Below are positions 29,707-64,000 of a stretch of 64,000 nt of DNA, piece after piece. Source of the DNA: Siphonodentalium dalli. Lineage: Eukaryota > Mollusca > Scaphopoda > Gadilida > Siphonodentaliidae. Within the stretch, counting starts at the first letter, position 1, and each line of letters opens with the position of its first letter. The notes below the pieces were generated by a model. The model did no database searches and was not told the origin of the DNA. It saw only the letters and a program-made list of their open reading frames with translations. Location: assembly GCA_032622095.1 (NCBI GenBank), contig CP136067.1:91440707-91504706 (forward strand). The letters run 5' to 3'. The position numbers and the translations under genes were made by a program.

Positions 29707-29752
29707 TAATTAGCGATATTATACAACTTGTATAGTATGCCTAAATATGCCT

Positions 29753-30154
29753 CTATACATGTGAACAGTGCGAAGGCAAAGATGAATTGTGAGTCGTGGT
29801 GAGTGATCTCGTAGGTATGTGATGGACCCTATATATTATCATCAGCCATGCATGTGCCGAAACCATACTGGAAGGAATAGTCAGTAGGGAGGCCGTGCTA
29901 TGCTGTTCGTTGTGTGTATTGTGTTTTGTGGGTAGCGAATGTAGTAAGACAAATTGCGGCCGTATAAACCCTATTAAATAGTCAGCATTGATACCAATAA
30001 AACATCTATAAACATATTTGGCAAAGTTATTTTTTAAATATCGGAATTTGGTAATACTGTACGTGCATATAAGGCCATAAGAAAGTACGTCACACGTTTG
30101 TCTAGATTTAGCAAAAACCGCAGCGGAATGTGAAAGAAGCAAGAATAACATCAT
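29753..30154 (-). other. Open frame with signal-peptide-like start, copy 2
   Basis: Identical in translation to 4655-5056. Conservation here only reflects the recent duplication and is no evidence of function. Confidence 0.2.
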
Positions 30155-39149: not shown

Positions 39150-39672
39150 GCGGCGCCACTTATGATGGAAATTGGCGAGTAAACAAATTCGCATCAAAGT
39201 TAAAGCCCCCCCCCCCCATCTCTCACCCAAAACGGTACCAAATGGTGTATTTAAACGATTAGATTCCTCGTATCACAGAGCACAATAATTATCAATATGT
39301 TTGAAATCGGCGTTAAACACACAGGGTATATCAAATTTTGGTGTCGCTCTCACCTTCGACTCGAATGGCCCCACTGTTGCCATATTTAAACCACGCAATC
39401 AGACTCCTGATGTCATGGAGATGATTATTCATAAGTTTGGTGCTAATCGGCGACTAAACAAATTTTATTAAAATTTAGCCCACCCCCCCCCCCCATCTAT
39501 CGCAAGCGGCACCAATATGGCGTCTTTAAATAGCACGATTATATTCCTCTTACAATGTATAAGAATGTGTACCATTTGGTGGAAATCGACGCTAAAAATA
39601 TGTGTATCAATTTGGGTGCCCTCTCCCCTTCAGTGGACCAGTGATTCGAACGACGCCACTTTTGACAGCTTC
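39150..39672 (+). repeat. ~138-bp satellite array, left part
   Basis: The phrase tgg(c/a)aatcggcg(a/c) or variants recurs near 39164, 39302, 39441 and 39578. Alternate units carry poly-C followed by 'catctctcaccc', giving a ~277-bp higher-order period. The last unit is broken after gacagcttc (39672) by the large palindromic element and continues at 58832. Confidence 0.8.
39667..39672 (+). repeat. 6-bp target-site duplication (left)
   Basis: AGCTTC immediately precedes the AGCAGCATG terminus; the same six bases follow the opposite terminus at 58832-58837. Confidence 0.85.
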
Positions 39673-39866
39673 AGCAGCATGTGGGCTTCTGCGGGGGCTG
39701 ATGGTATGGGACCCCTTCTCCTATAGGTTTGTATGTCTATGGCCCCATAGTATGGCAACGCCCCCTTTCCTATGCTTTGTGCGGGTCCATAGTCTTACAA
39801 ACTCCTCCTTTTTTATTAATTATTATATATCGCTCCTCCTTTTTCTCCTTCCCACGCAATTTTATC

Positions 39867-39965
39867 TTCTGGAACAATCTAGAAATTTTTTTTTCTGGAA
39901 CAATCTAGTAAAATATTTGTTTCTGGAAAATTCTAGAAATTTTTTTCTACAACATTCTAGTAAAA
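39867..39965 (+). promoter_or_regulatory. Heat-shock-element-like minisatellite in the terminal repeat
   Basis: Four 26-28 bp units of the type TTCTGGAACAATCTAGAA. The unit at 39921-39938 (TTCTGGAAAATTCTAGAA) is a perfect alternation of four TTC/GAA blocks spaced by two bases, the consensus bound by heat-shock factor; neighbours keep two or three blocks. Related units occur at 40389-40406 and 40446-40463. The mirror sites in the right arm are at about 58540-58635. Function is inferred from sequence only. Confidence 0.45.
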
Positions 39966-40635
39966 TCCATAATGTATTCGTGTAATAAAATTCATACTTG
40001 TATAAGGCCTCTTTAAAATTTATACCTGTAAAGCCCCAATGTTAATTTCACACGGTACACACATTGGCTTCTCACGCTATGATAGCATCTATCTATTTAC
40101 CGTTCTCCACGCATATAATTTAGGCAGTAAAACTCATTTCTCAAATCTTCTGGCTCTAAAACCCTTCGGCCCCTTTAACTTTTATACCTTTCGATAACTA
40201 AAAAACATTATTGATCTCACAGATTTATTAACTGCTCTGTACCTGGTAGTAAACACATTCCACGAGGCACGCTTTATCTCTAACAATAACAGAGCATCAT
40301 GGAATATATTCTATAATGGCTGGTTTACTCAATGCCAGATGTGCACTAAACACGCCAGCATCTATCTATTTACCGTTCGCAATTTTATCTTCTGGAACAA
40401 TCTAGTAAAATTCCTAAAAATATTCCTTCCCACGCAAATTATTCTTTCTGGAATAATCTGGAAATTTGTGTCTTCTACAACATTATAGTAAATCCATAAT
40501 GTATTCGTTTAAGACACTTCATACTCGCATATGGCCCTTTAAACTAACAATGCTGAAGGCAGGCGCACCTTTGTCTGTTAATTAACTTCTAAGCACGGGG
40601 GGAACACAATGCACCTACTGCAGGGCACAGAGCTC

Positions 40636-40855
40636 TCAAGCTAATAACACAACATATAACCATTCTGGAACATTCTCCATGCCGACGGGGATAAAGCGGT
40701 GAGACAGATTAATGAGATTATGCATACCACTAGGTGATAAAACATTTAAGCCTGCACTAATTTGAATAAAAAAACATTCAGGGGCCGGTATCATTTGCAC
40801 ATATTGGTTAGGAAAAATAAAATGCCTTTCTAGCTGCCTCTGAAACAATTAATAA
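40636..40855 (-). other. Possible exon preceded by a strong splice acceptor
   Basis: On the minus strand, taattgtttcag is followed by an open frame of about 70 codons (QLERHFIFPNQYVQM, PSGMHNLINLSHRF, ending VPEWLYVVLLA and stop). It has protein-like composition but no family I recognise. In the right arm the same region (about 57680-57867) carries deletions that break the frame. Confidence 0.25.
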
Positions 40856-41775
40856 AATTAAAATAATCTACAAAGTTCTCAGCACGTGGGAGACCATCTA
40901 GGTATTAAATACACATCTAACTCCAAGCAGCCAACATATGCTTACAGAGCATAACCCATGCAATTTAACTCTCACAAAAGTTATACCGCGAGCGGAATGA
41001 ACCCTGAATACATACTGACTCCCCAGTATGTATCCCTCCTAATGGTCAACTGTTATGGTACAATTGATTAAATCATCACTAACATTAGTTAAGCTTTTTC
41101 TCTAAATACCCCTTTAATATCTGTAATCGAACTATTAGGAATCAATCAATGCCTTGTCAATAGATATTTGAACATTTCAAATAAAGTAAATCCTACACAC
41201 AATTTCTCGAAGCTTCGTAATTAAACACATGTTTAAGTCATTTAATGCCACGATACGTCTGTCATTCAAATGCATGCTCCTAATGGCTTCTGCATCTGTG
41301 GAGACTGAGAGATAAACAAAATTAATGTTTCTGTAGAAATTAAGGTTTTCTAGTGTGTCACTACTTCAGATATGGTTCAAATAGCATACAAATCACCGCA
41401 TTTTGGTCACATACCTTAAAGGTACACGTCATTTATGCATTTAAACCTAATTCCGCGTATACATCAATCATCTCTTTATTTTCCAAATAGTTTGAATGTA
41501 CCTAGTTTTAACAAAGATTTATGCAATCTACATGCTTTCATTCATATAAAATTTACGAAATGTATGTTAAACGACAACAACATTGTAACAGACTGGCCAC
41601 TTACCTTCAATTTATAGGTCATATTAGCCTGTACATTTATGGGAGACAGACATACATAATATAATGCATTGGCACAGTGTTAGTGATAATAATAAGGTGT
41701 CATTACTTCAGAAATGGTTCATATAGCATACTGTTGTACCCGTGGTCACGTACATTAAATGAACACGTCACTTAA

Positions 41776-43290
41776 GCATTTAAACCTAACTCAGTGTATC
41801 TATCAATAAAACGCTCTTTATTTTCAAATTTGTCTGAATTGTACTAAATTTACATTTAAAATCAAGCATTTAAACCTAATTCCGTCTATCCGTGAATAAA
41901 AAACGCTCTTTATTTTCAAAATTTGTCTAAATGTCCATCGTTTACTAAATTTATATTTAAAATTAAGCATTTAAACCTAATTCCGTCTATCCGTAAATAA
42001 AAAACGCTATTTATTTTCAAAATTTGTCTTAATGTCCATCGTTTACTAAATTTATATTTAAAATTAAGCATTTAAACATAATTCATCGTATCTATCAATA
42101 AAACGCTCTTTATTTTCAAAAACGTCCATAGTTTTAACAAAGATTTTGCAATCTACATGCTTTAATTCATATAAAATTACCAAGTGTGTGTTAGACAACA
42201 ACATTATAACATATTGGCTTTCAAGTTACATATGCATGTACATTCGATGCACGAGGAAACATTGTAGGAAATGAAGGTATTGATGTGTCATTACTTTAGA
42301 AATTGTTCATACAATTGACCGTATTTTGATCACATACCTTAAAGGTACACGTCACTTTGTCTATAATCAGACAATACATTACACGTAGGGTTAAACATGT
42401 CCATCGTAGTAAGCTTATTTACTTCAGAAATGGTTCCAGTAGCATACTATTGCACCCGTGGTCACATACCTTAAAGGAACACGTCACTTAGGCATTTAAA
42501 CATAACTCAGTGTATCTATCAATTAAACGCTCTTTATTTTCAAAATTTGTCTTAATTGTACTAAATTTACATTTAAAATCAAGCATTTAAACCTAATTCC
42601 GTCTATCCGAAAAATAAAACACACTCTTTATTTTCAAAATTTGTCTTAATGTCCATCGTTTACTAAATTTATATTTAAAATTAAGCATTTCAACATAATT
42701 CATCGTATCCATAAATAAAAAACACTCTTTATTTTCAAAAACGTCCATAGTTTTAACAAAGATTTTTGCAATCTACATGCTTTAATTCATATAAAATTAC
42801 CCAGTGTGTGTTAGACAACAACATTATAACATATTGGCTTTCAAGTTACATATGCATGTACATTCGATGCACGAGGCAACATTGTAGGAAATGAAGGTAT
42901 TGATGTGTCATTACTTCAGAAATTGTTCATACAATTGACCGTATTTTGATCACATACCTTAAATGTACACGTCACTTTTGTCTATAATCACACAACAGAT
43001 TACACATAGGGTTCAACATGTCCACCGTAGTAAGCTTATTTACTTCAGAAATGGTTCCAATAACATAGTATTGTACCCGTGGTATCACATACCTTAAAGG
43101 TACACGTCACTTTTGTCTATAATCAGACATTACATTACACGTATGGTTAAGCATGTCCATCGTAGTAAGCTTATTTACTTCAGAAATGGTTCCAATAGCA
43201 TAGTATTGTACCCGCGGGGTCACATACCTTAAAGGTACACGTCATTTGTGTCTATAATCAGACAATACATTACGCATAGGGTTCAACATG
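41776..43290 (+). repeat. Nested tandem repeats in the left arm
   Basis: ~101-bp units start near 41866, 41967 and 42068 (gcatttaaacctaattccgtc...aaaacgctctttattttcaaaa). A larger 619-bp segment is duplicated (42121 and 42740). Further 'catacctta aaggtacacgtcact' units continue to about 43250. Many units include the AATAAA...CTCTTTATTT motif. Confidence 0.8.
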
Positions 43291-43873
43291 TTCACCGAAG
43301 CAACCTAATCCAAAAGCAACGAACACCCATTACTGAGTCCCGCTGTTACACACAACACAATTACTCTGGATTAAGGTCTTCCAGTAATGAGTTATGGTTG
43401 TATACTTTAGAAATGGTACCTATAGCATAATATTGTACCCCATTGATGCACATCACGTTTCATGTGAATTACATGAGCAGGTAACTCAATTCTCTGCATT
43501 TCGAATGGAGTTGGGTATTTTTGTATATTATATACAGCGTTATTTAGCTTAGAAATGGTTGTTATTTTATATCAATATGCCAGTTTATGTCACAGACAAA
43601 ATGCGTACTCACTCTTCACATAGACTAATATGTAAGCATTTGTATCATTTAGAATGTCAAAATATGGTCTAAATCAGTCGCAATAGCTATATATGGCCAC
43701 TTACCGTTCAAGTTATAACCCCATTAAAACTATGCTTCAAATGTAAATTATATGTAACTTGAATATGATCGGTCCCCAGGCCCTTTTTAGGTCATAGGTT
43801 CTAACCGACCATCGTTCATACTCGAACGCGTGTGTATATGATAGCTATGGTAATGGTAGATAAATCTAGAGAG

Positions 43874-44373
43874 TTACGTAGACCCACTGCCTACATCAAT
43901 ATATATATATATACAATATACATGCACTGGCCGCAATGGGTTCCCGTTACTAGCATATAGACATGAAGTATTAAAGTTATACACCTTCATCAGCGCGCTC
44001 TTAATGAGTTTTGAATTGGCATACGGGTACGAATCCAAACCATTCCGATGTAATTTATCGGAATGCCAATCATAACCATCTGCACAGAGAAAGCTAGTGG
44101 GGACGATACACACTGTTTGCGTATTGACTAGACAAATTGAGGTAAAGAAGCACCCTGATGTATCAAAGGTATATTTCAAGGATTTTTAATCGGCAACCAA
44201 TATTGAATATATTTTTGTTGGGCATGGTCATATGCACCACTGTGTTTCATATAAAACAAAAAACTAGTGGGTGGTGAAATCACCGAAGGCCAATATTCCC
44301 GATGGTAAGTTATTTTTAGCATATGGGATACATTTATGACTAAATCGGTTATAGGAAATGAGGTAAATTGCAC
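43874..44373 (-). other. Two adjoining open frames in the left arm, unknown
   Basis: One frame (44373-44176) starts MQFTSFPITDLVINV and ends IKNP; an overlapping one (44179-43874) contains CADGYDWHSDKLHRNGLDSY. The right arm has the same pair (54764-55009 and 55000-55239) with small differences; there the first frame runs longer because TGA is CGA. They might be parts of one decayed gene. No family recognised. Confidence 0.3.
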
Positions 44374-44517
44374 TTTATTATTTAAAAGGAATAACGCTAT
44401 ACAAGCTTAAACACACAAACCATGAGTTTTATCAACTTATTACGTGTAGCATATTTGGAGTTTAGTTATGTTCATCAAACACTGGTAATTGACACCTCTG
44501 TCTGTATATTTTTGTTA

Positions 44518-45114
44518 TTACGATTGGGTCCCGTGTTCACCCTTTTTAGTTGTAAGCGAATAGTCTCCATAGCTCCAAATCGTTCCGAATGTCCAAACTA
44601 ATTCACTATCTAATTCTGAAATAGGTTTAGTTGTGCTTACAATGTAATCCAAAACTAGTTGTTCATTGAACATCTTTTCAATCGTGAAAATAGGACAAGG
44701 TTCCCTCATAATAATGTAACCATAAATTGATGTAACTTCTTCGAATTCCAAACAATAGTCATTAAAAACCGTGCTACGGTATTCAGCGAAGCGGGCAAAG
44801 TTATCACCGATAAGTACACGAATCTCATACATGTCTTTTTTAGTAATACCACTAAATATCCAACACTCAGAAAACAGTTGATCCAAAGTATCCAGTAAGA
44901 TATCTGATTCAAATTCTGATCTCTCCATCAAAGCATTCAATCTCTTTCTACCATCATCAAAATTTCCTTCTAGAAGTTCCGTAATTATTAATTTACTCTC
45001 CCTTAAGAACCATGTATGTTGTAATTCTGTTTTCATGTCTCCATGTATCGTTGACGCGTTAACTAACTCCTTGTAAATTTTCTCAAGCATTTATGTGGGT
45101 AATATTTCATCCAT
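44518..45114 (-). pseudogene. ~198-codon uncharacterised gene, left-arm copy with nonsense lesion
   Basis: The minus-strand frame from ATG 45114 is interrupted at codon 8 by TAA (45093-45091) and is then open from an internal Met to 44518 (190 codons). The N-terminal pattern ILPTEMLEKIYKEL resembles the start of an F-box (LPxEILxxIxxxL), so an ubiquitin-ligase adaptor-like role is conceivable. The rest (WFLRESKLIITELLEGN, WIFSGITKKDMYEIRVLIG) has no family I recognise. It has acidic, helical-looking composition and no membrane segment. The right-arm copy lacks the stop but has a one-base deletion, so neither arm encodes the full frame. It is the longest non-repetitive frame in the element and the best candidate for an element-borne protein. 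Confidence 0.5.
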
Positions 45115-45399
45115 AATTCCTAATTTACAAAACCATCTGTTTATTCGAGTAAATCCGCTAACTCACATGTCATTGGACATGAGTTCCTCATATAATTAAC
45201 ACAATCGGTTGTTCGTACCCATACCTAGTGAGCTTTTGATCTATAATAGCTATCGGTAAAGTATTTAGTTCTTATTATAATATTTATAACCAATCAAAAT
45301 CCGTTGCTGAATTTAGCTATACGAGGACAAACGGAATGATAACATCCGTTCAACAACTTGGTATTCCAGTCATAGTCATAGTTCATTTCATATTATTAC

Positions 45400-46115
45400 T
45401 CTAAAATCTCCATTACATGGAGAAAATAAAGAGCCCATCTGATGTAAACTAGTATATAAGTACTTAGTGATTTATTTTCATCAATTATATGTATTGTTAC
45501 TCCTATAAATATAGTCTGTTATACAGAGGATACATCGCCCACGTGACAGTGTCGTGTCACGAAAGGTCTACTGTGTTCAAAGTATATAAATGCGTGTCAG
45601 GTTTATGTATATGTCCCTGTTTCTTAAAGCAAATCCAGTACATATACGTGCGTTAAGACACGTGCAATTACCACTAGTAAATCACGTATAAAAGCTCTTT
45701 AATGCATAGTTAAACTGTTGAGTTTTCACACGCATTATATGTCTTTTTTATGGACTATATACGTGGTATATGTCATTATATACAAGAATGTAATGTAATC
45801 ACGTGCGCGTATTAATTTCATATATTCTTCTCAAAACAACTCAGCACAACGCATCAATTCTGATGTCTATGGCGGTTCAAACAGTGTACACTTTCAGTGT
45901 TGTTACCGTTTAATGCATACCATACTCATTTATGCATAATAACGCGGGTCTACATCGTTGCTATATACCTATATACGTCCATATTTCTTAAAGTATAGTA
46001 TCTATACGTACATCATGGCGTATAGTAAACCCCCCTTTCACTGGTAAATCACGTATAAACGCTCTTTATTGTATAGTCAACTAACCATTTCTACATACAC
46101 GCTGTTCTGTGGTGG
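45400..46115 (+). repeat. ~367-bp tandem duplication with TATA-like/CTCTTTA motifs
   Basis: Both units share 'tttcttaaag', then 'gtaaatcacgtataaa(a/c)gctctttaatgcatag' (45677 and 46044). The unit may include a core-promoter-like TATAAA or, on the other strand, AATAAA. The mirror copy is in the right arm at about 53040-53700. Confidence 0.6.
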
Positions 46116-47039
46116 TCTGTTGTGTCTTACCATTATACCATTATATGTAGAAGGTAATGTGGTCAAATATGTTTAAGTCTGATTTTGTGTCAATGTGCCT
46201 GTTATTAATCTCATCAATTGGGTCGTTTATAAGTCGTCAAACATGATGATTTCTAATCATCTAATAGGTATTATAAAAAATGCCTACTTCACAAATATTT
46301 TGAGTGCATTTCAGTGTATGTTTCGTGCTCTGTAAAAACGTGATTTGACCGCTAGTGATGTAGTGAAATAACGTATTTTATAGTTGTCAAATACGTACTA
46401 AAAATATTGTCAATTTATGACTCATCTAATGAATTTTCCACACCTAGTGTCTACAATATGTTTATATATTGTGACTCATTACTACGATTGCAGTATGTCC
46501 ACGTATGTCAGATATTACATAACCTTGATAACTATGTTTAGAAATACCTGGTATATGAGATCATATTGTAGCAGACAGAGACTGGAATGCGACTTGCATC
46601 TACCATCACGTGCGTTCGAATGAAGTTACATGTACGATATGAGCCATTAATTGTGTCGATGAGGTGTTATATCAGTATATTCATGCAATATTCGTAAATG
46701 ACAGCAACATATCTTTTCCCTCCCATTATCAAGCGAGATTTTGTGATTAGCTGACAAACATGGCATTTCGAATATATATAGCCTATTGGACACTTACTTC
46801 AAATGCTAAAATTGCCTCTTCAAAATAGTTAAAAGTACACATTTTTATTTCGAATTTCATTGTTTACGGTTAATTTCCTGTTATGAAATTGGTCCTTTTA
46901 TAAATGCTTAATACGCAGTTACAAAAAGCCCTAATTGACAAACATTTTAAGCGCTATTATGACTATATTTGACGAATAAAAAAAACGCCATTTGACCTAG
47001 TACAACAACGTGAAATGACTACTTTTTAAACGCGAATTT

Positions 47040-47408
47040 GAAACAAAACTAATATACAAAAGAATTTTAAACTAAAATAATAAGTTTGGTTGATGGACGT
47101 AGTACAACAACGTGAAATGACTACTTTTTTAAACGCGAATTTGAAACAAAACTAATATACAAAAGAATTTTAAACTAAAATAATAAGTTTGGTTGATGTA
47201 TAGTTTGGTTGACAGCATTTTCACACACAGAAGCGTTATGATACAGTTTCACCACTCACACAGAAGCGATCTTATACGGTGTAGCGGTATGTTACAGAGT
47301 TATCGTTCTTTTCGAGGCTAAAAAAAGCGCAGGCCGGCCCCCTCCCTCTCCCCCGTTTTAAAAGGGGCGGGGTTAAGGGGAGCGATCGCGCGTCACGAAA
47401 AAATGTTA
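47040..47408 (+). repeat. ~110-bp tandem pair and GC-rich box at the inner end of the left arm
   Basis: Two copies of 'acgtagtacaacaacgtgaaatgactactttt...' (about 46997 and 47097) are followed by a GC-rich stretch (gcaggccggccccctccctctcccccg) and gcgatcgcgcgtcacg. The mirror image lies at 48800-49215. The contrast with the AT-rich surroundings is strong. Confidence 0.75.
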
Positions 47409-48798
47409 CCCCCATTTTACACATAACCCTTCTACATATTTACCACAATTCTACTTTTACCCTTACCCAATATAACCCCCTCCCTTCCGAACTTCTTAGC
47501 CATCATCTTTATGCTACTTTGTGCATCATTCATGTTCTTTGCCCTATGTCCCTGTCATTTCCTATAAGTTTACACCATTTTGCATGTGTTCTCCTTTTTA
47601 CTACTGTATCCTTAATACACAAACCCCCAAATTCATACACATATACGTAATACTTTCCATTCATTCTCTGCTTTATGTTTACTCTTTTGTCGCGTTACAT
47701 CCCCTATGTTTTCGACCAACTGCTTACACTGAAATTATATATATATATGTCCCATTTTACCCATCTCTTCTCCTCTCCACCCCCAGTTCATATGATTTAG
47801 TTATACTTTTACCCCTATGGCCCTCTTTTCTCACTCCCTCTGCTTTCCTCTACCTGGTGCCATTTTATTTTCTATACCAATTAAGCCCCTTGACGGCTCT
47901 TACCCATAATTACTGTCTGCAATCATGGTTACCCCTCTCCTTCCAAAGCAAAACCCCCACATTTCATATGATTTAGGTATATACTCAATGATTATTCTTA
48001 TCTCATCTACTTTAATTATGTACATGTTCCCCACCCCAGCTCTCTGCTATACACCTCTATTCATTTTGCCCTATACCCCATTTACCTTTCTCCACATAAC
48101 CACCTTTCATTCTTTTTTACCTTCCCCTTTTGTACCTCTAAACACTTTGTTCTTCCCACAACAATCCCAATGTTTTCCTAGGAAAGTAATGCTTACTAAT
48201 CAATGTTTTCTCCAAATTATACCCTTCTGCTCCCATTTACTTGCCTCTCACTCTACCCGTCGCCTTCCCCTCTTTACACATGTATAAACCTCTGTTGAGT
48301 GGCTTTTCTTAGCCTCCTATACTCTTCGCTATACACCTCTATACACTCTCCCACTGCCCCTTTACCCTTTGTTCCATAAGCACCTTTCATTCTTTTCATG
48401 TCTCCCTTTTCCATTTTTATACAACTTTTATTTTACCTCTGTTCTACACACAACAATCCCAATGTTTTCCTAGGAAAGTAAGGCTTACACCTCAATGTTT
48501 TCTCCAAATTATACCCTTCTGCCCCAATTTCTTGCCTCTCGCTCTCCCCATCTCCTTCCCATTTTTGCACCATCTACATGTATAAACCTATATTGAGTGG
48601 CTTTTCCTAGCCTCCTAAGCTCTTCACTATATGTTAATTCATATATTAAAAACCATGAACAGTGTACACTACCTAATCCATTATCATCTCCAATTAATAC
48701 ACGGTCATATCATCCCATCACCATTTCCCACACTCCATTACCCCTCATACTGTGTCGTTTCTCCCATCCATTTCATCTGCCTTATACTTTTCTTCTAT
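47409..48798 (+). other. Unique polypyrimidine loop of the palindrome
   Basis: This 1.4-kb stretch is strikingly rich in C and T on the plus strand (ttacccc, cctcccttcc). It contains a ~290-bp tandem duplication ('acaacaatcccaatgttttcctaggaaagta' at about 48159 and 48452; 'tatacacctctat' at 48049 and 48331). Open frames at 47521-47976 and 47925-48287 encode Pro/Leu/Tyr/Ser-rich low-complexity sequence caused by the base bias. I do not regard them as genes. Confidence 0.7.
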
Positions 48799-49555
48799 GA
48801 CATTTTTTCGTGACGCGCGATCACTCCCCTTAACCCCGCCCTTTTAAAACGGGGGAGAGGGAGGGGGCCGGCCTGCGCTTTTTTTAGCCTCGAAAAGAAC
48901 GATAACTCTGTAACATACCGCTACACCGTATAAGATCGCTTCTGTGTGAGTGGTGAAACTGTATCATAACGCTTCTGTGTGTGAAAATGCTGTCAACCAA
49001 ACTATACATCAACCAAACTTATTATTTTAGTTTAAAATTCTTTTGTATATTAGTTTTGTTTCAAATTCGCGTTTAAAAAAGTAGTCATTTCACGTTGTTG
49101 TACTACGTCCATCAACCAAACTTATTATTTTAGTTTAAAATTCTTTTGTATATTAGTTTTGTTTCAAATTCGCGTTTAAAAAAGTAGTCATTTCACGTTG
49201 TTGTACTACGTCAAATGGCGTTTTTTTTATTCGTCAAATATAGTCATAATAGCGCTTAAAATGTTTGTCAATTAGGGCTTTTTGTAACTGCGTATTAAGC
49301 ATTTATAAAAGGACCAATTTCATAACAGGAAATTAACCTTAAACAATGAAATTCGAAATAAAAATGTGTACTTTTAACTATTTTGAAGAGGCAATTTTAG
49401 CATTTGAAGTAAGTGTCCAATAGGCTATATATATTCTAAATGCCATGTTTGTCAGCTAATCACAAAATCTCGCTTGATAATGGGAGGGAAAATATATGTT
49501 GCTGTCATTTACGAATATTGCATGAATATACTGATATAACACCTCATCGACACAT

Positions 49556-52490
49556 ATAATAGCGAGTTTGCGATTTCAAACGGGTACGGGTACCGGTACG
49601 GGTACTGGTAGCTACCCGTACCGGTACACGTTTTGAAATCGCAAACTGTTTTACGGGTAGAATTAAGCATATCGACGGGTAGTGTATGGTGAGCCAATTG
49701 CATCACAATATATATGATGTAGAGAAATTGTTATCCGCATTCGCTTTCTTGGCCGACGTTATACTTGTTGTTATGGTTATATGATGGACATCTGCGTGGA
49801 TAATGGATTGCATTAACCAGGGACCAGGCGAAAGTGGAAGGGGTTGGCGTCTTTCTTTGACTCATTTTGGTAACATTTTCAATAATTAGCTTTCATAAGT
49901 AATTTCCCAGACCGTTCGAGTGTCGTCTTGAACAGATGGAATTTTCTGACTCAGAAAATATGTTATGATAGCCCAAATATACAATTACGCTAATTTAATA
50001 ATCCAACCATTATTCGGTGTAAAATGTGTTGGTTTAGACCCAGGGTCCAAGAATGTCCTACATGCATGCACTTTTAGTCAGATATAAGACCGAAATTGCC
50101 CCTTATATTAGTTGGGGAATATTTAGTCATATAACTGGTAATGGGTTGGAATCTTTCGAATGGTCGGGCAAGGGAATATTCATCCCAAGAACTTGGATAT
50201 TTGTCTGGGTCTAAACCCGGATGTAGGTAGAACAAGAGCTACACTGGGCGTGCAAAATACCCCCTCTCTTGGGTCGGCGGAAACTGGTAAAAAATGGCAT
50301 AACTCTAGTAAAAATTGGCGGACGGAACTCAAATTTGAACTTGACCTGTGTTTTGGTGGGAGAAAGTAATATAACAAATTATCATTGAATCCGATAAGCT
50401 CTAGTAAAGTTATCATCCGGAAAACAAATTTCAGGGATTTTCTAAGTCAAATTACGTCAAATAAGGGGCATAACTCCGGTGAAAATTGGTGGACGGAACC
50501 CAAATTCGAACTTGATCTGTCTTTTCTCCTAATAAACCCACATACCAAATTTGATTGAAATCGGTTCACTCTAACTAACTCTGCCAGAACCCAAGTTCGA
50601 ACTTGACCTGTGTTTTGGTGGGAGAAAGTAATATACCAAATTTGGATTCATTCCGATAAACTATATTAAAGTTATCATCCGGACAACAAATTTCAAGGAT
50701 TTTCTAAGTCAAAAAACGTCAAATAAGGGGCATAACTCCGGTGAAACTTGGCGGGCGGAACCCAAATTCGAACTTGAACTTACTTTTCGGCTAATAAACC
50801 CACATACCAAATTTTATTGAATTTGGTTCACTCTAACTAAAGTTATCATCCGGAATCCAGGTTAACGGACGAACGCCCGGACGGACAGACCAATACTATA
50901 ATGCGGCCGTTTTTTTCAAACGGGCGTATAAAAATCAAACTTGTTAAATATAAAGGGTGTTTAATGGTACACTATTCATTATATGGTTCGAATAAAGAGC
51001 GTTTGCTTCACGTCTATGCGAAACAAAGAAAACAGCTAAAAGTCGATCTGATGACGTAAGATTGTGCCGACTATGAGGTGTGTATATCAGTATTTGGTGT
51101 CACTATCGGCCACTACAATATACAACAGTCTTGGGGTTCAAATGCGCCATGTCCGTTCAAAAGTCAAATATCTATATTAAAATGAGAAATCAGTCACCAC
51201 CACATAAGGTACAATAACTGAACGGTTGTATTCAATCGTGTAACACATTCACGGTGTACTTATGCACAAAGGGTCGATAGGGGACGTGGTGAGAGGGTGT
51301 GGTGTATCACCCCAACTTTTGTCAACAGTTGGATATTGCATATACCTAACACACCAAAACATACGTTGAAATTATTCTGTCATTCAGTTTGATTTTCCAA
51401 AAATGTATTAGTGCGTTTTTTTTTTTTAGTTTTAGACCAACATTTGCAAATATTCCTACTTTTGGTAGAAAAACATTCGGGATTTATGGTCAACAGCAGG
51501 TTGGAAATATCCAACAAATGTAAAGCTTGAGGAAAGTCAATAATTTATCAATTTTCATGTTCAGATTTCAAAACGTTCTCACACCAGACCGAACCATGAT
51601 CGACCCGGTATGCCCTGGTCTAACCACATTCAGTGGCTCGTCAATACTGATCATTGATTTGTGAAAAACAAACCAGGGCGTGAATTTGCCTGGTGTTAGA
51701 CCACTAGATGCCATGATTTTGCAATTTCCAGGTTCATATCTACAAAACTGTTCTCGTACTGCATGGTCGGCAAGGTGGAACCCCCATCACAGGAATTCTG
51801 CAACAAGACTACTGATCCATTTAGAACAGTCCACAATAATATTCAGGACAGTGAAGGATCAGTTGCATGGGGGGAATCAGAGCCCAACGGCGTGCACAAT
51901 TTGAATTACGCACAAACCTCTGTTTGGTGTGGTTTAAGGGGGTGTATAGTTGGGAATTTGAAGGTGGACACACCTTCTCAACGCGGAGACCCCCTATAAT
52001 TACGTCCCTATGTCGAGACTGCGTATAGCACCGCCAACTCACTCTCTTAATCATAACATGTCGAGAATCCCGGGGTTAGCCCCCCCCCCCCCCAAATCAC
52101 ATTCCCAAAAAATAACATGTCATTACTTGAGTGAAGACAGTTGTCAGTAAACAAATCGGCGTTCCATAGTTATCTTAGTGTTAGAAGCCGCCTCGATACT
52201 TTGAACATAAAACATGGCTTACATGACAAATGTATCAATGAGATTTGGCAATTAAATCGTGCAATAAATAGATTAATGCATAGCTGACTGTTATTTCGTA
52301 GAACTAATGTACTTTTGAGTGAGAAAACTTTAGCGAAAGACTACCAGTCAACGGGATACATCTACCCGTTCCAAATCCCTATCGCTTTATGTGCTGCATT
52401 CAAAGTACGCAAATGACCGTGACGATTTTCACCGATCTACCTGGATCTACCGGTACCCGTACCCGTCCGACGGGTATCGCAAACTCGCTA
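49556..52490. mobile_element. Insertion nested in the right arm, with TAGCGAGTTTGCGAT inverted ends
   Basis: The corresponding left-arm site (46641-46656) is empty. The inserted segment begins TAGCGAGTTTGCGAT and ends ATCGCAAACTCGCTA. The left end is itself a near-perfect hairpin (agtttgcgatttcaaa ... ttttgaaatcgcaaact) with GGTACCGGTACGGGTACC-type repeats in the loop. The interior includes three units of a ~170-260 bp dispersed repeat (ggcataactc at 50296, 50467 and 50729). No transposase is seen. The target duplication is unclear (possibly TA). Confidence 0.75.
50240..50935 (+). repeat. Dispersed repeat units with 'ggcataactc...cggacgga'
   Basis: Three related units contain ggcataactc(t/c)(a/g)gt, a 'ggcgg(a/g)cggaac(c/t)caaatt(c/t)gaactt' segment and 'aagttatcatccgga'. 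The last ends in acggacgaacgcccggacggacagacc, the sort of tail seen on widespread invertebrate repeats. Confidence 0.6.
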
Positions 52491-54023
52491 ATGGCTCATA
52501 TCGTACATGTAACTTCATTCGAACGCACGTGATGGTAGATGCAAGTCGCATTCCAGTCTCTGTCTGCTACAATATGATCTCATATACCAGGTATTTCTAA
52601 ACATAGTTATCAAGGTTATGTAATATCTGACATACGTGGACATACTGCAATCGTAGTAATGAGTCACAATATATAAACATATTGTAGACACTAGGTGTGG
52701 AAAATTCATTAGATGAGTCATAAATTGACAATATTTTTAGTACGTATTTGACAACTATAAAATACGTTATATCACTCCATCACTAGCGGTCAAATCACGT
52801 TTTTACAGAGCACGAAACATACACTGAAATGCACTCAAAATATTTGTGAAGTAGGCATTTTTTATAATACCTATTAGATGATTAGAAATCATCATGTTTG
52901 ACGACTTATAAACGACCCAATTGATGAGATTAATAACAGGCACATTGACACAAAATCAGACTTATACATATTTGACCACATTACCTTCTACATATAATGG
53001 TATAATGGTAAGACACAACAGACCACCACAGAACAGCGTGTATGTAGAAATGGTTAGTTGACTATACAATAAAGAGCGTTTATACGTGATTTACCAGCGA
53101 AAGGGGGGTTTAATATACGCCATGATGTACGTATAGATACTATACTTTAAGAAATATGGACGTATATAGGTATATAGCAACGGTGTAGACCCGCGTTATT
53201 ATGCATAAATGAGTATGGTATGCATTAAACGGTAACAACACTGATAGTGTACACTGTTTGAACCACCATAGACATCAGAATTGATGCGTTGTGCTGAGTT
53301 GTTTTGAGAAGAATATATGAAATTAATACGCGCACGTGATTACATTACATTCGTGTATATAATGACATATACCACGTATATAGTCCATAAAAAAGACATA
53401 TAATGCGTGTGAAAACTCAACAGTTTAACTATGCATTAAAGAGCTTTTATACGTGATTTACTAGTGGTAATTGCACGTGTCTTAACGCACGTATATGTAC
53501 TGGATTTGCTTTAAGATACAGGGACATATACATAAACCTGACACGCATTTATATACTTTGAACACAGTAGACCTTTCGTGACACGACACTGTCACGTGGG
53601 CGATGTATCCTCTGTATAACAGACTATATTTATAGGAGTAACAATACATATAATTGATGAAAATAAATCACTAAGTACTTATATACTAGTTTACATCAGA
53701 TGGGCTCTTTATTTTCTCCATGTAATGGAGATTTTAGAGTAATAATATGAAATGAACTATGACTATGACTGGAATACCAAGTTGTTGAACGGATGTTATC
53801 ATTCCGTTTGTCCTCGTATAGCTAAATTCAGCAACGGATTTTGATTGGTTATAAATATTATAATAAGAACTAAATACTTTACCGATAGCTATTATAGATC
53901 AAAAGCTCACTAGGTATGGGTACGAACAACCGATTGTGTTAATTATATGAGGAACTCATGTCCAATGACATGTGAGTTAGCGGATTTACTCGAATAAACA
54001 GATGGTTTTGTAAATTAGGAATT

Positions 54024-54619
54024 ATGGATGAAATATTACCCACAGAAATGCTTGAGAAAATTTACAAGGAGTTAGTTAACGCGTCAACGATACATGGAGA
54101 CATGAAAACAGAATTACAACATACATGGTTCTTAAGGGAGAGTAAATTAATAATTACGGAACTTCTAGAAGGAAATTTTGATGATGGTAGAAAGAGATTG
54201 AATGCTTTGATGGAGAGATCAGAATTTGAAACAGATATCTTACTGGATACTTTGGATCAACTGTTTTCTGAGTGTTGGATATTTAGTGGTATTACTAAAA
54301 AGACATGTATGAGATTCGTGTACTTATCGGTGATAACTTTGCCCGCTTCGCTGAATACCGTAGCACGGTTTTTAATGACTATAGTTTGGAATTCGAAGAA
54401 GTTACATCAATTTATGGTTACATTATTATGAGGGAACCTTGTCCTATTTTCACGATTGAAAAGATGTTCAATGGACAACTAGTTTTGGATTACATTGTAA
54501 GCACAACTAAACCTATTTCAGAATTAGATAGTGAATTAGTTTGGACATTCGGAACGATTTGGAGCTATGGAGACTATTCGCTTACAACTAAAAAGGGTGA
54601 ACACGGGACCCAATCGTAA
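54024..54619 (+). pseudogene. ~198-codon uncharacterised gene, right-arm copy with frameshift
   Basis: Starts at ATG 54024 with MDEILPTEMLEKIYKEL, open through GITKK, then shifts frame at a run of five A (54297-54301) where the left arm has six. The downstream part is open in another frame (54305-54619) and ends EHGTQS and stop. It has no codon-8 stop, unlike the left-arm copy. F-box-like N-terminus as noted there; otherwise unknown. Confidence 0.5.
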
Positions 54620-54763
54620 TAACAAAAATATACAGACAGAGGTGTCAATTACCGGTGTTTGATGAACATAACATAACTCCAAATATGCTACACGTAATAA
54701 GTTGATAAAACTCATGGTTTGTGTGTTTAAGCTTGTATAGCGTTATTCCTTTTAAATAATAAA

Positions 54764-55239
54764 GTGCAATTTACCTCATTTCCTATAACCGATTTAGTCA
54801 TAAATGTATCCCATATGCTAAAAATAACTTACCATCGGGAATATTGGCCTTCGGTGATTTCACCACCCACTAGTTTTTTGTTTTATATGAAACACAGTGG
54901 TGCATATGACCATGCCCAACACAAATATATTCAATATTGTTTGCCGATTAAAAATCCTCGAAATATACCTTTGATACATCAGGGTGCTTCTTTACCTCAA
55001 TGTGTCTAGTCAATACGCAAACAGTGTGTATCGTCCCCACTAGCTTTCTCTGTGCAGATGGTTATGATTGGCATTCCGATAAATTACATCGGAATGGTTT
55101 GGATTCGTACCCGTATGCCAATTCAAAACTCATTAAGAGCACGCTGATGAAGGTGTATAACTTTAATACTTCATGTCTATATGCTAGTAACGGGAACCCA
55201 TTGCAGCCAGTGCATGTATATTGTATATATATATATTGA
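54764..55239 (+). other. Two adjoining open frames in the right arm, unknown
   Basis: Mirror of 44373-43874. The first frame has 81 codons and ends ASLPQCV; the second starts about 55000 in another frame. No recognised family. Confidence 0.3.
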
Positions 55240-58200
55240 TGTAGGCAGTGGGTCTACGTAGCTCTCTCGATTTATCTACCATTACCATAGCTATCATATA
55301 CACACGCGTTCGAGTATGAACGATGGTCGGTTAGAACCTATGACCTAAAAAGGGCCTGGGGACCGATCATATTCAAGTTACATATAATTTACATTTGAAG
55401 CATAGTTTTAATGGGGTTATAACTTGAACGGTAAGTGGCCATATATAGCTAATACGACTGATTTAGACCATATTTTGACATTCTAAATGATACAAATGCT
55501 TACATATTAGTCTATGTGAAGAGTGAGTACGCATTTTGTCTGTGACATAAACTGGCATATTGATATAAAATAACAACCATTTCTAAGCTAAATAACGCTG
55601 TATATAATATACAAAAATACCCAACTCCATTCGAAATGCAGAGAATTGAGTTACCTGCTCATGTAATTCACATGAAACGTGATGTGCATCAATGGGGTAC
55701 AATATTATGCTATAGGTACCATTTCTAAAGTATACAACCATAACTCATTACTAGAAGACCTTAATCCAGAGTAATTGTGTTGTGTGTAACAGCGGGACTC
55801 AGTAATGGGTGTTCGTTGCTTTTGGATTAGGTTGCTTCGGTGACCATGTTGAACCCTATGCGTAATGTATTGTCTGATTATAGACACAAATGACGTGTAC
55901 CTTTAAGGTATGTGACCCCGCGGGTACAATACTATGCTATTGGAACAATTTCTGAAGTAAATAAGCTTACTACGATGAACATGCTTAACCATACGTGTAA
56001 TGTAATGTCTGATTAAAGACAAAAGTGACGTGTACCTCTAATGTATGTGATACCACAGGTACAATACTATGTTATTGGAACCATTTCTGAAGTAAATAAG
56101 CTTACTACGGTGGATATGTTGAACCCTATGTGTAATGTTTTGTGTGATTATAGACAAAAGTGACGTGTACCTTTAAGGTATGTGATCAAAATACGGTCAA
56201 TTGTATGAACAATTTCTGAAGTAATGACACATCAATACCTTCACTTCCTACAATGTTGCCTCGTGCATCGAATGTACATGCATATGTAACTTGAAAGCCA
56301 ATTTGTTATAATGTTGTTGTCTAACACACACTGGGTAATTTTATATGAATGAAAGCATGTAGATTGCAAAAATCTTTGTTAAAACTATGGACGTATTTGA
56401 AAATAAAGAGCGTTTTTTATTTATGGATACGATGAATTATGTTGAAATGCTTAATTTTAAATATAAATTTAGTAAACGATGGACATTAAGACAAATTTTG
56501 AAAATAAATAGCGTTTTTTACTCACGGATAGACGGAATTAGGTTTAAATGCTTAATTTTAAATATAAATTTAGTAAACGATGGACATTAAGACAAATTTT
56601 GAAAATAAAGAGCGTTTTTTATTCACGGATAGACGGAATTAGGTTTAAATGCTTGATTTTAAATGTAAATTTAGTACAATTCAGACAAATTTGAAAATAA
56701 AGAGCGTTTTATTGCTAGATACACTGAGTTAGGTTTAAATGCTTAAGTGACGTATTCATTTAGTGTACGTGACCACGGGTACAACAGTATGCTATATGAA
56801 CCATTTATGAAGTAATGACACCTTATTATTATCACTAACACTGTGCCAATGCATTATATTATGTATGTCTGTCTCCCATAAATGTAGAGGCTAATATGAC
56901 CTATAAATTGAAGGTAAGTGGCCAGTCTGTTACAATGTTGTTGTCGTTTAACATACATTTCGTAAATTTTATATGAATGAAAGCATGTAGATTGCATAAA
57001 TCTTTGTTAAAACTAGGTACATTCAAACTATTTGGAAAATAAAGAGATGATTGATGTATACGCGGAATTAGGTTTAAATGCATAAATGACGTGTACCTTT
57101 AAGGTATGTGACCAAAATGCGGTGATTTGTATGCTATTTGAACCATATCTGAAGTAGTGACACACTAGAAAACCTTAATTTCTACAGAAACATTAATTTT
57201 GTTTATCTCTCAGTCTCCACATATGCAGAAGCCATTAGGAGCATGCATTTGAATGACAGACGTATCGTGGCATTAAATGACTTAAACATGTGTTTAATTA
57301 CGAAGCTTCGAGAAATTGTGTGTAGGATTTACTTTATTTGAAATGTTCAAATATCTATTGGCAAGGCGTTGATTGATTTATAATAGTTCGATTACAGATA
57401 ATAAAGGGGTATTTAGAGAAAAAGCTTAACTAATGTTAGTGATGATTTAATCAATTGTACCATAACAGTTGACCATTAGGAGGGATACATAATGGGGAGT
57501 CATTATGTATTCAGGGTTCATTCCGCTCGCGGTATAACTTTTGTGAGAGTTAAATTGCATGGGTTATGCTCTGTAAGCATATGTTGGCTGCTTGGAGTTA
57601 GATGTGTATTTAATACCTAGATGGTCTCCCACGTGCTGAGAACTTTGTAGATTATTTTAATTTTATTAATTGTTTCAGAGGCAGCTATTTTTCCTAACCA
57701 ATATGTGCAAATGATACCGGCCCCTGAATGTTTTTTATTCAAATTAGTGCAGGCTTAAATGTTTTATCACCTAGTGGTATGCATAATCTCATTAATCTGT
57801 TTCACCGCTTTATCCCCGTCGGTATGGAGAATGTTCCAGAATGGTTATATGTTGTGTTATTAGCTTGAGAGCTCTGTGCCCTGCAGTAGGTGCATTGTGT
57901 TCCCCCGTGCTTAGAAGTTAATTAACAGACAAAGGTGCGCCTGCCTTCAGCATTGTTAGTTTAAAGGGCCATATGCGAGTATGAAGTGTCTTAAACGAAT
58001 ACATTATGGATTTACTATAATGTTGTAGAAGACACAAATTTCCAGATTATTCCAGAAAGAATAATTTGCGTGGGAAGGAATATCTTTAGGAATTTTACTA
58101 GATTGTTCCAGATGATAAAATTGCGAACGGTAAATAGATAGATGCTGGCGTGTTTAGTGCACATCTGGCATTGAGTAAACCAGCCATTATAGAATATATT

Positions 58201-58539
58201 CCATGATGCTCTGTTATTGTTAGAGAGAAAGCGTGCCTCGTGGAATGTGTTTACTACCAGGTACAGAGCAGTTAATAAATCTGTGAGATCAATAATGTTG
58301 TTAAGTTATCGAAAGGTATAAAAGTTAAAGGGGCCGAAGGGTTTTAGAGCCAGAAGATTTGAGAAATGAGTTTTACTGCCTAAATTATATGCGTGGAGAA
58401 CGGTAAATAGATAGATGCTATCATAGCGTGAGAAGCCAATGTGTGTACCGTGTGAAATTAACATTGGGGCTTTACAGGTATAAATTTTAAAGAGGCCTTA
58501 TACAAGTATGAATTTTATTACACGAATACATTATGGATT

Positions 58540-58635
58540 TTACTAGATTGTTGTAGAAAAAAACTTTCTACAATTTTCCAGAAACAAATATTTTACTGGA
58601 TTGTTCCAGAATTTTTTTTTTCTAGATTGTTCCAG
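58540..58635 (-). promoter_or_regulatory. Heat-shock-element-like units in the right terminal repeat
   Basis: Mirror of 39867-39965. Here the four-block site is reduced to TTCTACAATTTTCCAGAA (one GAA lost, 58567-58584) and neighbours read TTCCAGAA and TTCTAGAT. Confidence 0.4.
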
Positions 58636-58831
58636 AAGATAAAATTGCGTGGGAAGGAGAAAAAGGAGGAGCGATATATAATAATTAATAAAAAAGGAGG
58701 AGTTTGTAAGACTATGGACCCGCACAAAGCATAGGAAAGGGGGCGTTGCCATACTATGGGGCCATAGACATACAAACCTATAGGAGAAGGGGTCCCATAC
58801 CATCTGCCCCCGCAGAAGCCCACATGCTGCT

Positions 58832-58837
58832 AGCTTC
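58832..58837 (+). repeat. 6-bp target-site duplication (right)
   Basis: AGCTTC directly after the CATGCTGCT terminus, matching 39667-39672. Confidence 0.85.
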
Positions 58838-61773: not shown

Positions 61774-61992
61774 CTAAGCCGCGACACACGCAAGGCTACT
61801 TCCAGTGCCCATGTTATGTGCACTCGTGACCGACAGTGGCCAATCATAAAGGAGGCATATCTTCCTGTCTGAGTCGTGGATAAAAGACACACACTTTGCC
61901 TTGGTGCAGCCCGTGGCGCAGTCTATGTAGTGACTTCTTGAGATTGTTTCGAATGATCCAGGCCTGCTCATTCTGTCGAGCGCATTGATTCT
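61774..61992 (-). CDS. PAN/apple-like domain exon (partial gene)
   Basis: The minus-strand frame encodes SFETISRSHYIDCATGCTK, AKCVSFIHDS, RKICLLYDW and ends SSLACVAA with TAG at 61776-61774. The C-x3-C-x4-C-x-S-F...C-x-L pattern is that of PAN/apple-like modules in secreted or membrane invertebrate proteins, which mediate protein or sugar contacts. Candidate acceptors lie at ...aatgagcag (about 61957) and ...attcttgag (about 61993). Upstream the frame runs on to 62346 without domain signal, probably intron or 5' flank. The rest of the gene was not found, so it may be a fragment. Confidence 0.5.
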   Translation of the reverse strand, partial: RINALDRMSRPGSFETISRSHYIDCATGCTKAKCVSFIHDSDRKICLLYDWPLSVTSAHNMGTGSSLACVAA

Positions 61993-64000
61993 CAAGAATA
62001 TACATGCACGATAAAAAAAACCATGACTGTGCATGACGGTGACGATCACTATGACGTGAAAGTAAACGCAAGCACGTGCTATGTGTATCGCTACCGACAT
62101 GGCTGTATGTAATGCACAAGCGTTGAAAGCCGTTGCGTAAATCACATAATTGGAAAATGCAACAACGGTAACTGGCCTGTTCTGAATGTATGTGGTCCCC
62201 AAAGGTCGAACTAAGTCTACGGAATGTACACGCAACTCGCCGGTATTAAGTAGTTCTTCAATTCCGAAAATGACGAAAGCCGTTGAGTAAATCACAAACG
62301 TGGTTTGTACAATATAAAACAATCCATATGGTTCTTGATAATTCAAGTCCCAGGATTGTACAGCTATTATGTAGTTCTATAATCATTCAGTAACGCACGT
62401 CATTGTTGGAATAAACAATTTTACATGAGCCATTGAGTTGATAGTCAGTTGAACTGTATCTCATGTTTTTGCCAAGCTGCTGGAACAACTGAGGAGGGGT
62501 GGTGCATTGGACCCAGTCAATAAATACGAAGTTGGCATTATGATCACGTGGGGTGGTTCACCAATCGACAATGAAGTTGAATCTACGACGAGTTTATGAC
62601 GTCTGCTATATCAACAATATTTTATATTCCAGTCTAGTTTACTGGTATCAAAGTTCCTTTCATCCCAAGACAAAGATTGTCGCTAATTTAAGTCAACTAT
62701 ACATTTCAATTGTCAACAATTAAGGGACAAAGTCACGGAAACTGGCACGCTTATGTGATCCTGTTGTGACTATATACGTATTATTGATCTGTGCATTTCA
62801 AAAGTATTCGTCGATATTGTGCTTACACGTTTGTGTGTATATACCTGTCAGATGTCGCGCCTTGTTTAGAATACTATACGTTGTGTGGTTTCTTTGGGGA
62901 CTGTTGTCAGAGTATAGAGTGTGCATTGTATTTATGTTTTTATGAGTCGTAGAGCGTACATTGTGGTGGCGATATAACTGATGTTCTGTATGAAGGAGTA
63001 TATCGGTAGGCGATCAGAATATCATTCATTGTCCAATCAAAAATATTTGTATCAACCAGATCATGATAAAAATATTTAAAAAAAACATCGCTTGCAACGC
63101 CATGTACGCACGTGGAAGACTTTTGAAGACGGGTAACACTTGTGTATGCATTGCCTCTGGTATAGCCTTTGGACTACTAGGACAAAGATGATTGCCATTG
63201 TATGTTTTTGAAAGTCTGGTATCTCTTACCTTGATAGCAAACTTGATTCCAGAGTTTAAAATACCTCAAATAGGGACCGAATTGCCAATTCCCTCACGAG
63301 AATAAGAGATGCCTAAATATTGGGGCATTTTAAATTAAGTTATGTTTCAAACTGTCTTGCAAATTATGAACAGAATTTAGTAAAATAAGTGGTTTAAACA
63401 AATAAAAAGAAAGCACTTTTCAGGTATAGGTCGATAGAGAGTTTGACATGAACTATTTTCTAAAAATAGAACATTATCTAGGTTATGAACCCAGCTATTG
63501 CATGAGCTCTGTCTACGCTCTGAAATCATCATTACTGCATGCCTGCGAGATAATGGATCAAACATTTTCATTGTATATTCTAGTGTTTGTTGGTAGCAAT
63601 TTGCAGAACCATTTGTTTATCAAATTAACAATAAAAGACAACATAAATATTGTTCAACGACGTTTGCAATAAATTTGACATTCTCCCAAAACCTCACTCA
63701 ACAAAAAGCTTTTCCGGCGAATCATGTAAATTCCTATCTTTTTATTTTTATTATAAAAGATGCATAATCTCTCCCCGGAATCATATGCATTACTTATGTG
63801 CATGAAATAATAATTCCGCGTCGGATGAGACGTCGTGTTGAGCTTGAGTTCTGAGATTTCATGATAACTTCTCTATAATCTGAATACTATTATCTCAATC
63901 TTCGTTTGAAACTAAGACAGAAAGTTCTCATATTTTAGAATATATGACAAGAACATAACGTTTCCCGGAAGACATATAGGCGGCATGATTGATGTTGAAT
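61993..64000. other. No gene seen
   Basis: AT-rich DNA. There is a weak internal duplication ('gccgttg(c/a)gtaaatcaca' near 62127 and 62279). Short frames such as 63448-63672 lack recognisable domains. The window ends without a gene boundary being visible. Confidence 0.45.

What the first reader, a model, noticed from the sequence alone, without database searches (positions are those of the whole stretch)
39673..58831. Giant palindromic element: 7.7-kb inverted arms, 1.4-kb loop, 6-bp target duplication
Seen directly: AGCAGCATGTGG... ends, exact AGCTTC flanks and mirror-image content over almost all of 19.2 kb. Known: Maverick/Polintons are 15-20 kb with 6-bp duplications and long inverted repeats, but those repeats are usually up to about a kilobase and the interior encodes polymerase, integrase and capsid genes. 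Here the repeats have grown to nearly the whole element and no core gene is recognisable. This could be an undescribed class of very large non-autonomous, fold-back Maverick-like elements mobilised in trans.
Basis: partly seen in the sequence, partly recalled or inferred. Interest (0 to 1): 0.92.

Follow-up and report, generated by a model that had tools for sequence, protein, structure and literature searches.

The report
Giant palindromic Polinton-derived mobile elements
An animal genome, probably a mollusc's, holds many copies of a mobile element, often 16-19 kb long, that is almost entirely one sequence and its mirror image; it appears to descend from virus-like Polinton transposons, lacks their replication genes and probably moves by borrowing them.

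Summary
Window 39673-58831 is a near-palindrome with arms 98.8-99.0% identical, a 1.4-kb loop and exact AGCTTC flanks. It is no assembly fold-back: 12 of 12 elements with both ends read have (AGC)2 termini and an exact 6-bp duplication, at 11 sites. The arms carry a 190-214 aa gene whose homologue (53-57% aa) lies beside protein-primed PolB in a Polinton of the same genome, which also has integrase, PC4 and TBP. Relatives with similar outer arms carry a Pox_A32-type ATPase and PC4. The layout recurs: of 57 adjacent arm-gene pairs within 12 kb, 52 are minus-then-plus and none the reverse; ATPase pairs 27 of 27; no scored PolB locus is in such a pair. Substitutions private to an element and shared by both arms show that one arm derives from the other. 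Best reading: Polinton-derived non-autonomous palindromes, mobilised in trans, like inverted-duplication defective genomes. No PolB or integrase was found in them, and no autonomous element with the same termini was identified. New variant of a known kind.

The parts
39667..39672 (.). left target-site duplication AGCTTC
39673..47406 (+). left arm of the palindrome (7.7 kb), starting AGCAGCATGTGG
   Evidence: self-BLAST and alignment
44518..45090 (-). 190-aa open frame in the left arm (214 aa in other copies); homologue of the gene next to PolB in a resident Polinton
47407..48799 (.). loop between the arms
48800..49563 (-). right arm, inner piece (pairs with 46643-47406)
49564..52488 (.). nested 2,925-bp insertion with its own short inverted ends; no match in the left arm or in the fetched pieces L009-L034
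52489..58831 (-). right arm, outer piece (pairs with 39673-46649)
53976..54619 (+). second copy of the gene, in the right arm, split over two frames (53976-54431 and 54299-54619)
58832..58837 (.). right target-site duplication AGCTTC

Best explanation
The element is a non-autonomous derivative of a Polinton/Maverick in which one end of the genome is present twice, in mirror image. SHOWN: (AGC)2 ends, exact 6-bp target duplications and near-identical arms at many loci; a gene in the arms that is homologous to one in a resident Polinton; gene pairs in the same mirror layout in diverged subfamilies; and sequence of one arm derived from the other. INFERRED: the palindrome arose when protein-primed strand-displacement replication folded back or switched template, giving a genome with the same end (origin and, probably, packaging signal) at both termini. 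Its displaced strand can self-anneal over more than 7 kb into a panhandle, which restores a double-stranded end and lets differences between arms be copied away. PolB, integrase and perhaps capsid come in trans from autonomous Polintons in the same genome, and the integrase inserts the element with a 6-bp duplication. It would behave like an inverted-duplication defective or satellite genome of a Polinton.
For: 12 of 12 elements with both ends read begin AGCAGCAT, end ATGCTGCT and have an exact 6-bp duplication (11 sites; E4/E6 share one). The arm gene matches the gene beside PolB in L035 at 53-57% aa, E 1e-64 to 2e-60, in the 14 matches that span it; that element has PolB (176.8 bits), integrase plus chromodomain (56.3, 32.4), PC4 (55.4) and TBP (110.4). 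E13/E14 share most of the outer ~3.4 kb, have mirrored arms of about 5 kb (over 98% identical), a PC4 frame in each arm (50.1 bits, one copy scanned) and an ATPase over the Pox_A32 cut-off in the loop. Adjacent arm-gene hits within 12 kb: 52 minus-plus, 3 minus-minus, 2 plus-plus, 0 plus-minus, among 150 hits. ATPase: 27 of 27 adjacent pairs minus-plus, among 91 hits. PolB: 2 neighbour pairs under 25 kb among 69 scored loci, both same-strand. Inner arm segments of nine copies: 106 element-private substitutions shared by both arms, 247 in one arm. E13/E14 differ from E1 in the inner arm on both sides in mirror, which is easiest if one arm is copied from the other. Seven of ten E1-type copies are 16.2-17.8 kb once nested insertions in E1 and E9 are subtracted, near the 16,862 +/- 1,678 bp of intact vertebrate Mavericks (PMC8097293, passages).
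Against: No autonomous element with these termini or arms was identified. The one Polinton read beside the arm-gene homologue shares with the palindromes only that gene (69.5% DNA over 583 bp) and a distant PC4 (30% aa); its termini were not reached. None of 40 TIR hits has one of the 69 scored PolB loci inside within 25 kb, but only 69 of 1,596 PolB and 40 of 231 TIR candidates were scored. E12 contributes 49 of the 106 shared private changes; without it the count is 57 against 235. Own partner as nearest neighbour, by segment: 18 of 22, 13 of 21, 14 of 19, 10 of 18, 8 of 10 arms, so homogenisation is partial. E2 and E8 lack the E1 loop. Sizes are not uniform: E8 12.9, E13 12.9, E14 11.4, E2 19.2, E4 21.3 kb, and further TIR pairs 1.3-17.7 kb apart, so a packaging-size rule is weak. 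Host gene conversion after insertion could explain arm identity as well.
Confidence: 0.72

Rival explanations
1. Assembly fold-back artefact: one arm was duplicated in mirror image by the assembler.
For: Long palindromes are a classic place for assembly error (general knowledge).
Against: Different contigs and flanks carry the same structure with exact 6-bp duplications in 12 of 12 elements; the arms of one element differ by 0 to 3.2% in the segments compared; a nested insertion sits in one arm only in E1.
Confidence: 0.02
2. Ordinary fold-back transposon of another superfamily (Foldback/Galileo/P, Mutator-like or similar) that picked up a Polinton gene.
For: Long inverted arms with internal tandem repeats resemble Foldback and Galileo elements; no integrase was found in the E1-type copies.
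Against: Constant 6-bp duplications and doubled-trinucleotide ends fit Polintons; Galileo and Foldback duplications have other lengths (recalled). Relatives with similar outer arms carry A32-type ATPase and PC4; the arm gene sits beside PolB in a Polinton.
Confidence: 0.08
3. Polinton-derived, but the palindrome is kept uniform by host gene conversion in the chromosome, not by replication of an extrachromosomal panhandle; each subfamily is one old inverted duplication that spreads by simple trans-mobilisation.
For: Inverted repeats in chromosomes convert (general knowledge). Most private changes are in one arm (247 against 106).
Against: The mirror layout recurs with different gene content: the 214-aa gene in the arms, PC4 in the arms with ATPase in the loop, and ATPase pairs, which suggests repeated formation. 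The inner arm differs between E1 and E13/E14 on both sides in mirror.
Confidence: 0.25
4. Two Polintons integrated head to head, or an inverted duplication made at the insertion site.
For: Would also give mirror-image halves.
Against: In 12 of 12 elements a single 6-bp duplication encloses the whole element, and loop sequence of E1 recurs in E3, E4, E5, E6, E7, E9, E12 and E15, so the palindrome is the unit that moves.
Confidence: 0.04

Closest known systems
Polinton/Maverick (adintovirus-like) elements
   Same: 6-bp target duplications; ends of a repeated trinucleotide starting AG (here AGC twice; AGT twice in many vertebrate Mavericks, PMC8097293 passages); 16.2-17.8 kb in 7 of 10 E1-type copies after subtracting nested inserts; a homologous gene; relatives with A32-type ATPase and PC4
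   Different: inverted repeats of 7.7 kb against 46-1,447 bp in intact vertebrate Mavericks; no PolB, integrase, capsid-like or protease-like match in the fetched copies; mirror-image genome
Foldback / Galileo / Tetris-type fold-back transposons (seen in the listing only)
   Same: very long arms with internal repeats and a short middle
   Different: other superfamily and duplication length (recalled); the arms here hold a Polinton gene
Inverted-duplication defective genomes of protein-primed replicons (adenovirus incomplete particles, palindromic derivatives of yeast linear plasmids; both recalled, the searches listed no paper that I used)
   Same: same end at both termini, mirror halves, dependence on a helper's polymerase (for the present elements inferred)
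   Different: those are extrachromosomal by-products (recalled); here the palindromes are integrated, multi-copy and split into diverged subfamilies
Teratorn (PMC6431247, passages)
   Different: a herpesvirus with a piggyBac-type transposase, 41-182 kb, 18-bp TIRs (and the title of that section)

Membership tests
Polinton/Maverick | 6-bp target-site duplication | tested here: met
   12 of 12 elements with both ends read, 11 sites
Polinton/Maverick | termini 5'-AG... with a short repeated motif | tested here: met
   AGCAGC...GCTGCT in 12 of 12; compare (AGT)2//(ACT)2 in PMC8097293
Polinton/Maverick | terminal inverted repeats of about 0.05-1.5 kb | tested here: not met
   7.7-kb arms in E1; the range 46-1,447 bp for vertebrates is from PMC8097293
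Polinton/Maverick | protein-primed DNA polymerase B | tested here: not met
   frames of L035, which include PolB, against E1 and L009-L034 by tblastn at E 1e-3: no PolB match; a divergent or split PolB could be missed
Polinton/Maverick | retroviral-type integrase | tested here: not met
   integrase frame of L045 searched the same way: no match
Polinton/Maverick | A32/FtsK-type packaging ATPase | tested here: inconclusive
   not searched with the ATPase in E1 itself; no E1-type place is among the 91 listed ATPase hits; present in relatives E13/E14 (PF04665 27 bits, cut-off 22.8)
Polinton/Maverick | capsid and protease genes | tested here: not met
   capsid-like and protease-like frames of L045 gave no match in E1 and L009-L034; capsid is my reading of a frame without Pfam match
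Non-autonomous Polinton derivative | same termini as an autonomous Polinton of the genome | tested here: inconclusive
   40 of 231 TIR candidates scored, none with a scored PolB locus inside within 25 kb; the termini of L035/L045 were not reached
Foldback / Galileo | duplications of 7-9 bp (recalled) | tested here: not met
   6 bp in 12 of 12
Defective-interfering genome | replication by, and interference with, a helper | not testable with these tools
   needs experiment

The most novel reading that the evidence does not exclude
An animal genome carries persisting lineages of palindromic satellite genomes of Polintons: inverted-duplication genomes that replicate by panhandle formation with a helper's protein-primed polymerase, re-create one arm from the other, may be packaged by the helper's capsid, and have spread far beyond one-off replication errors. 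Several gene combinations (the 214-aa gene, PC4 plus ATPase, ATPase in both halves) were turned into palindromes separately.
Probability: 0.35. Interest if true: 0.9.

Novelty: new variant of a known kind. Interest (0 to 1): 0.75.

Why it matters
Whether Polintons of animals behave as viruses, with extrachromosomal protein-primed replication and particles, is open (the abstract of PMC8097293, seen in the listing, says that particles have not been observed). Inverted-duplication genomes are a by-product that such replication could be expected to give (inference), so abundant integrated ones would be a record of it. They also give a testable helper-satellite system inside an animal genome, and show that a mobile element can consist almost wholly of inverted repeat and still spread.

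Tried and rejected
Loop orientation as a sign of arm recombination: dropped, because in a palindrome the orientation is set by the loop alone. A divergence gradient from tip to loop: dropped, because the outer segment is also the most variable between elements. Selection on the arm gene: among ten open E1-type copies 9 synonymous and 25 non-synonymous distinct changes, ratio about 0.7; between the diverged groups 0.35-0.42; this does not tell whether selection acted in the palindromes or in autonomous ancestors. Structure of the 214-aa protein: poor model (mean pLDDT 43.5), not used. Homologues of it in the 5.8-billion-protein set: none at E 0.001 among 76 candidates. Virus contigs: no relative of the ATPase confirmed. 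Rfam: nothing at gathering score in the window. PDB by sequence: only weak zinc-finger matches for the ATPase protein, none for the capsid-like frame. PHROGs: no strong match for the arm gene or the ATPase. L034, fetched as a possible autonomous relative, shares about 1 kb with the end of E13 and gave no match to the L035/L045 frames. Nearness of arm-gene hits to scored PolB loci: 1 of 150 within 30 kb, at 27.5 kb; ATPase hits: 0 of 91 within 20 kb.
Full report
OBSERVATION. Self-comparison of the window shows an inverted repeat with its ends at the stated coordinates. Alignment gives left arm 39673-47406, loop 47407-48799 and right arm 48800-49563 plus 52489-58831; identities are 6264/6342 and 755/763; inverted 16-mer matches number 12,238 against 0-5 in five shuffles. 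A 2,925-bp insertion (49564-52488) lies in the right arm only, and the left arm has a 617-bp extra tandem block. The flanks are exact AGCTTC repeats.

COPIES. The genome holding the window has 2.23 Gb in 9 contigs; the first 1,000 bases of the element gave 61 matches, 40 of 248 candidates scored. I read 14 paired loci out of that table (E1-E14). Of the 13 other than E1, 11 were fetched (E2-E9 and E12; E13 and E14); E10 and E11 were not. With E1, 12 of 12 have AGCAGCAT...ATGCTGCT termini and a matching direct duplication of exactly 6 bp. E4 and E6 share flanks and duplication and are probably one insertion later duplicated, so 11 sites. Two further loci (E15 = L033, and L034) were fetched from one side only.

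ANATOMY OF THE FAMILY. Long pieces of the E1-type copies match the E1 arm mostly at 96-98.5%; the outermost part can be lower (79-94% in E12, E9 and others), and loop sequence recurs in E3, E4, E5, E6, E7, E9, E12 and E15 but not in E2 and E8. E9 carries a nested retrotransposon in one arm (RVT_1, 135.9 bits). E2 and E4 are internally rearranged, and E15 and E8 have one long arm and only about 0.85 kb of the other. E13 and E14 share most of the outer arm up to about position 3,393 of E1 and then differ, in mirror image on both sides.

GENES. The E1-type arms have one clear conserved frame, 214 aa in ten of the fetched arms used (frames), in E1 at window 44518-45090 on the minus strand as 190 aa; the right-arm copy of E1 is broken. 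It has no Pfam match over cut-off and no homologue in the protein set. In E13/E14 each arm has a 203-aa frame (PC4, 50.1 bits, cut-off 25, in the copy scanned) and the loop encodes a protein, 467 aa in the piece held, with a Pox_A32-type ATPase match (27 bits, cut-off 22.8) and zinc fingers.

LINK TO POLINTONS. PF03175 gave 69 scored loci of 1,596 candidates, all over the cut-off; one listed match has a stop inside, the others none. Around one of them (L035 and L045, overlapping pieces read apart) lie PolB, a 218-aa gene, PC4, TBP, a frame with a sub-threshold adenovirus-endoprotease match (20 bits, cut-off 21.3), a 420-aa frame without Pfam match that I take for a capsid protein by size and place only, and an integrase with chromodomain. 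The 218-aa gene is the homologue of the arm gene in the palindromes (53-57% aa in the 14 matches that span it; lower or shorter for broken copies), and its PC4 is a distant homologue of that of E13/E14 (30% aa). The other frames of this Polinton, PolB and integrase among them, gave no match in E1 or in L009-L034.

THE MIRROR LAYOUT IS COMMON. The arm-gene protein gave 151 matches, 150 of them listed, 150 of 1,606 candidates scored. Among the 150, adjacent hits within 12 kb are 52 minus-plus, 3 minus-minus, 2 plus-plus and 0 plus-minus; the 52 hold 104 hits. 28 of the 52 are in the E1-like group (69% or more) and 24 in a group 62-68% identical. The 9 hits of a third group (58-61%) are single. 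E1, whose right copy is broken and not listed, and E2, whose two copies are on one strand, are not among the 52. The ATPase protein gave 91 scored of 4,303 candidates: 16 at 91% or more are all single, as expected for a loop gene; of 75 at 85-86%, 54 form 27 pairs under 12 kb, paired without a strand rule, all minus-plus, 2.2-3.0 kb from start to start, 23 with equal identity. As a contrast, the 69 PolB loci hold two neighbour pairs under 25 kb, both on one strand. I did not read the arms of the 62-68% group or of the paired ATPase group, apart from one 809-base piece, so palindromes there rest on gene pairs alone. One gene of the 62-68% group lies 11.3 kb inside a terminal repeat like that of E1 (89% over 140 bases).

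ARM COPYING. Arms whose nearest neighbour is their own partner, ties taken as listed: outer segment 18 of 22, mid 13 of 21, in1 14 of 19, in2 10 of 18, in3 8 of 10 (arms without a partner in the segment left out). For the inner segments of nine E1-type copies, 106 private substitutions are shared by both arms and 247 are in one arm; E12 supplies 49 of the 106. Private changes found in both arms need copying between arms, or formation of the palindrome from a template that already had them. Either way one arm derives from the other after the copies' lineages split.

MECHANISM. End-motif repeats suit the jumping-back of protein-primed replication (PMC8097293, discussion passage). Fold-back of a displaced strand would give the same end twice. 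A genome with two identical ends could keep every signal needed in cis and need only proteins in trans. This is inference from anatomy; inverted-duplication genomes of adenovirus and palindromic linear plasmids are recalled, and the searches listed no paper that I used. Seven of ten E1-type copies with both ends fall at 16.2-17.8 kb after subtracting nested inserts in E1 and E9 (mean 17.1 kb), close to intact vertebrate Mavericks, but other copies and TIR pairs run from 1.3 to 21.3 kb, so packaging is only a suggestion.

WHAT IS MISSING. No autonomous element with these termini was identified. Of 40 TIR hits none has a scored PolB locus inside within 25 kb; two have one outside within 25 kb. 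Searches score only the best candidates, and most genome queries did not complete because the machine was busy. Trans-mobilisation, panhandle replication and packaging are not shown.

VERDICT.

Noticed in passing
L045:812-1366 (+), within C2:222990501-222996500: A resident Polinton encodes a TATA-binding-protein homologue (PF00352, 110.4 bits, two stretches) next to a PC4 protein: a virus-like element with two transcription-factor genes.
   Followed up: partly
window 1-8516 and 25086-33613: An 8.5-kb direct duplication, 99.7% identical, with long frames that look to me like a retrotransposon's; the one frame scanned had no Pfam match.
   Followed up: no
window 49564-52488: Nested 2.9-kb element with short inverted ends and two 262-bp tandem copies inside; family not identified.
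   Followed up: partly
G000 C7:123919291-123920615: Two inverted terminal-repeat matches spanning 1.3 kb: a possible miniature element with the same ends.
   Followed up: no
G000 C5:75039445 and C5:75046429: Two PolB matches in the same orientation 7 kb apart, perhaps a tandem or overlapping Polinton.
   Followed up: no
L044, C8:142627301-142632800: A second Polinton type with a longer PolB frame (about 1,312 aa), an integrase (62.2 bits) and an ATPase-like frame (Adeno_IVa2 21.2 bits, cut-off 21).
   Followed up: partly
window 61774-62373 (-): Frame with a PAN-domain match just under the cut-off (19.6 of 21.4 bits).
   Followed up: no
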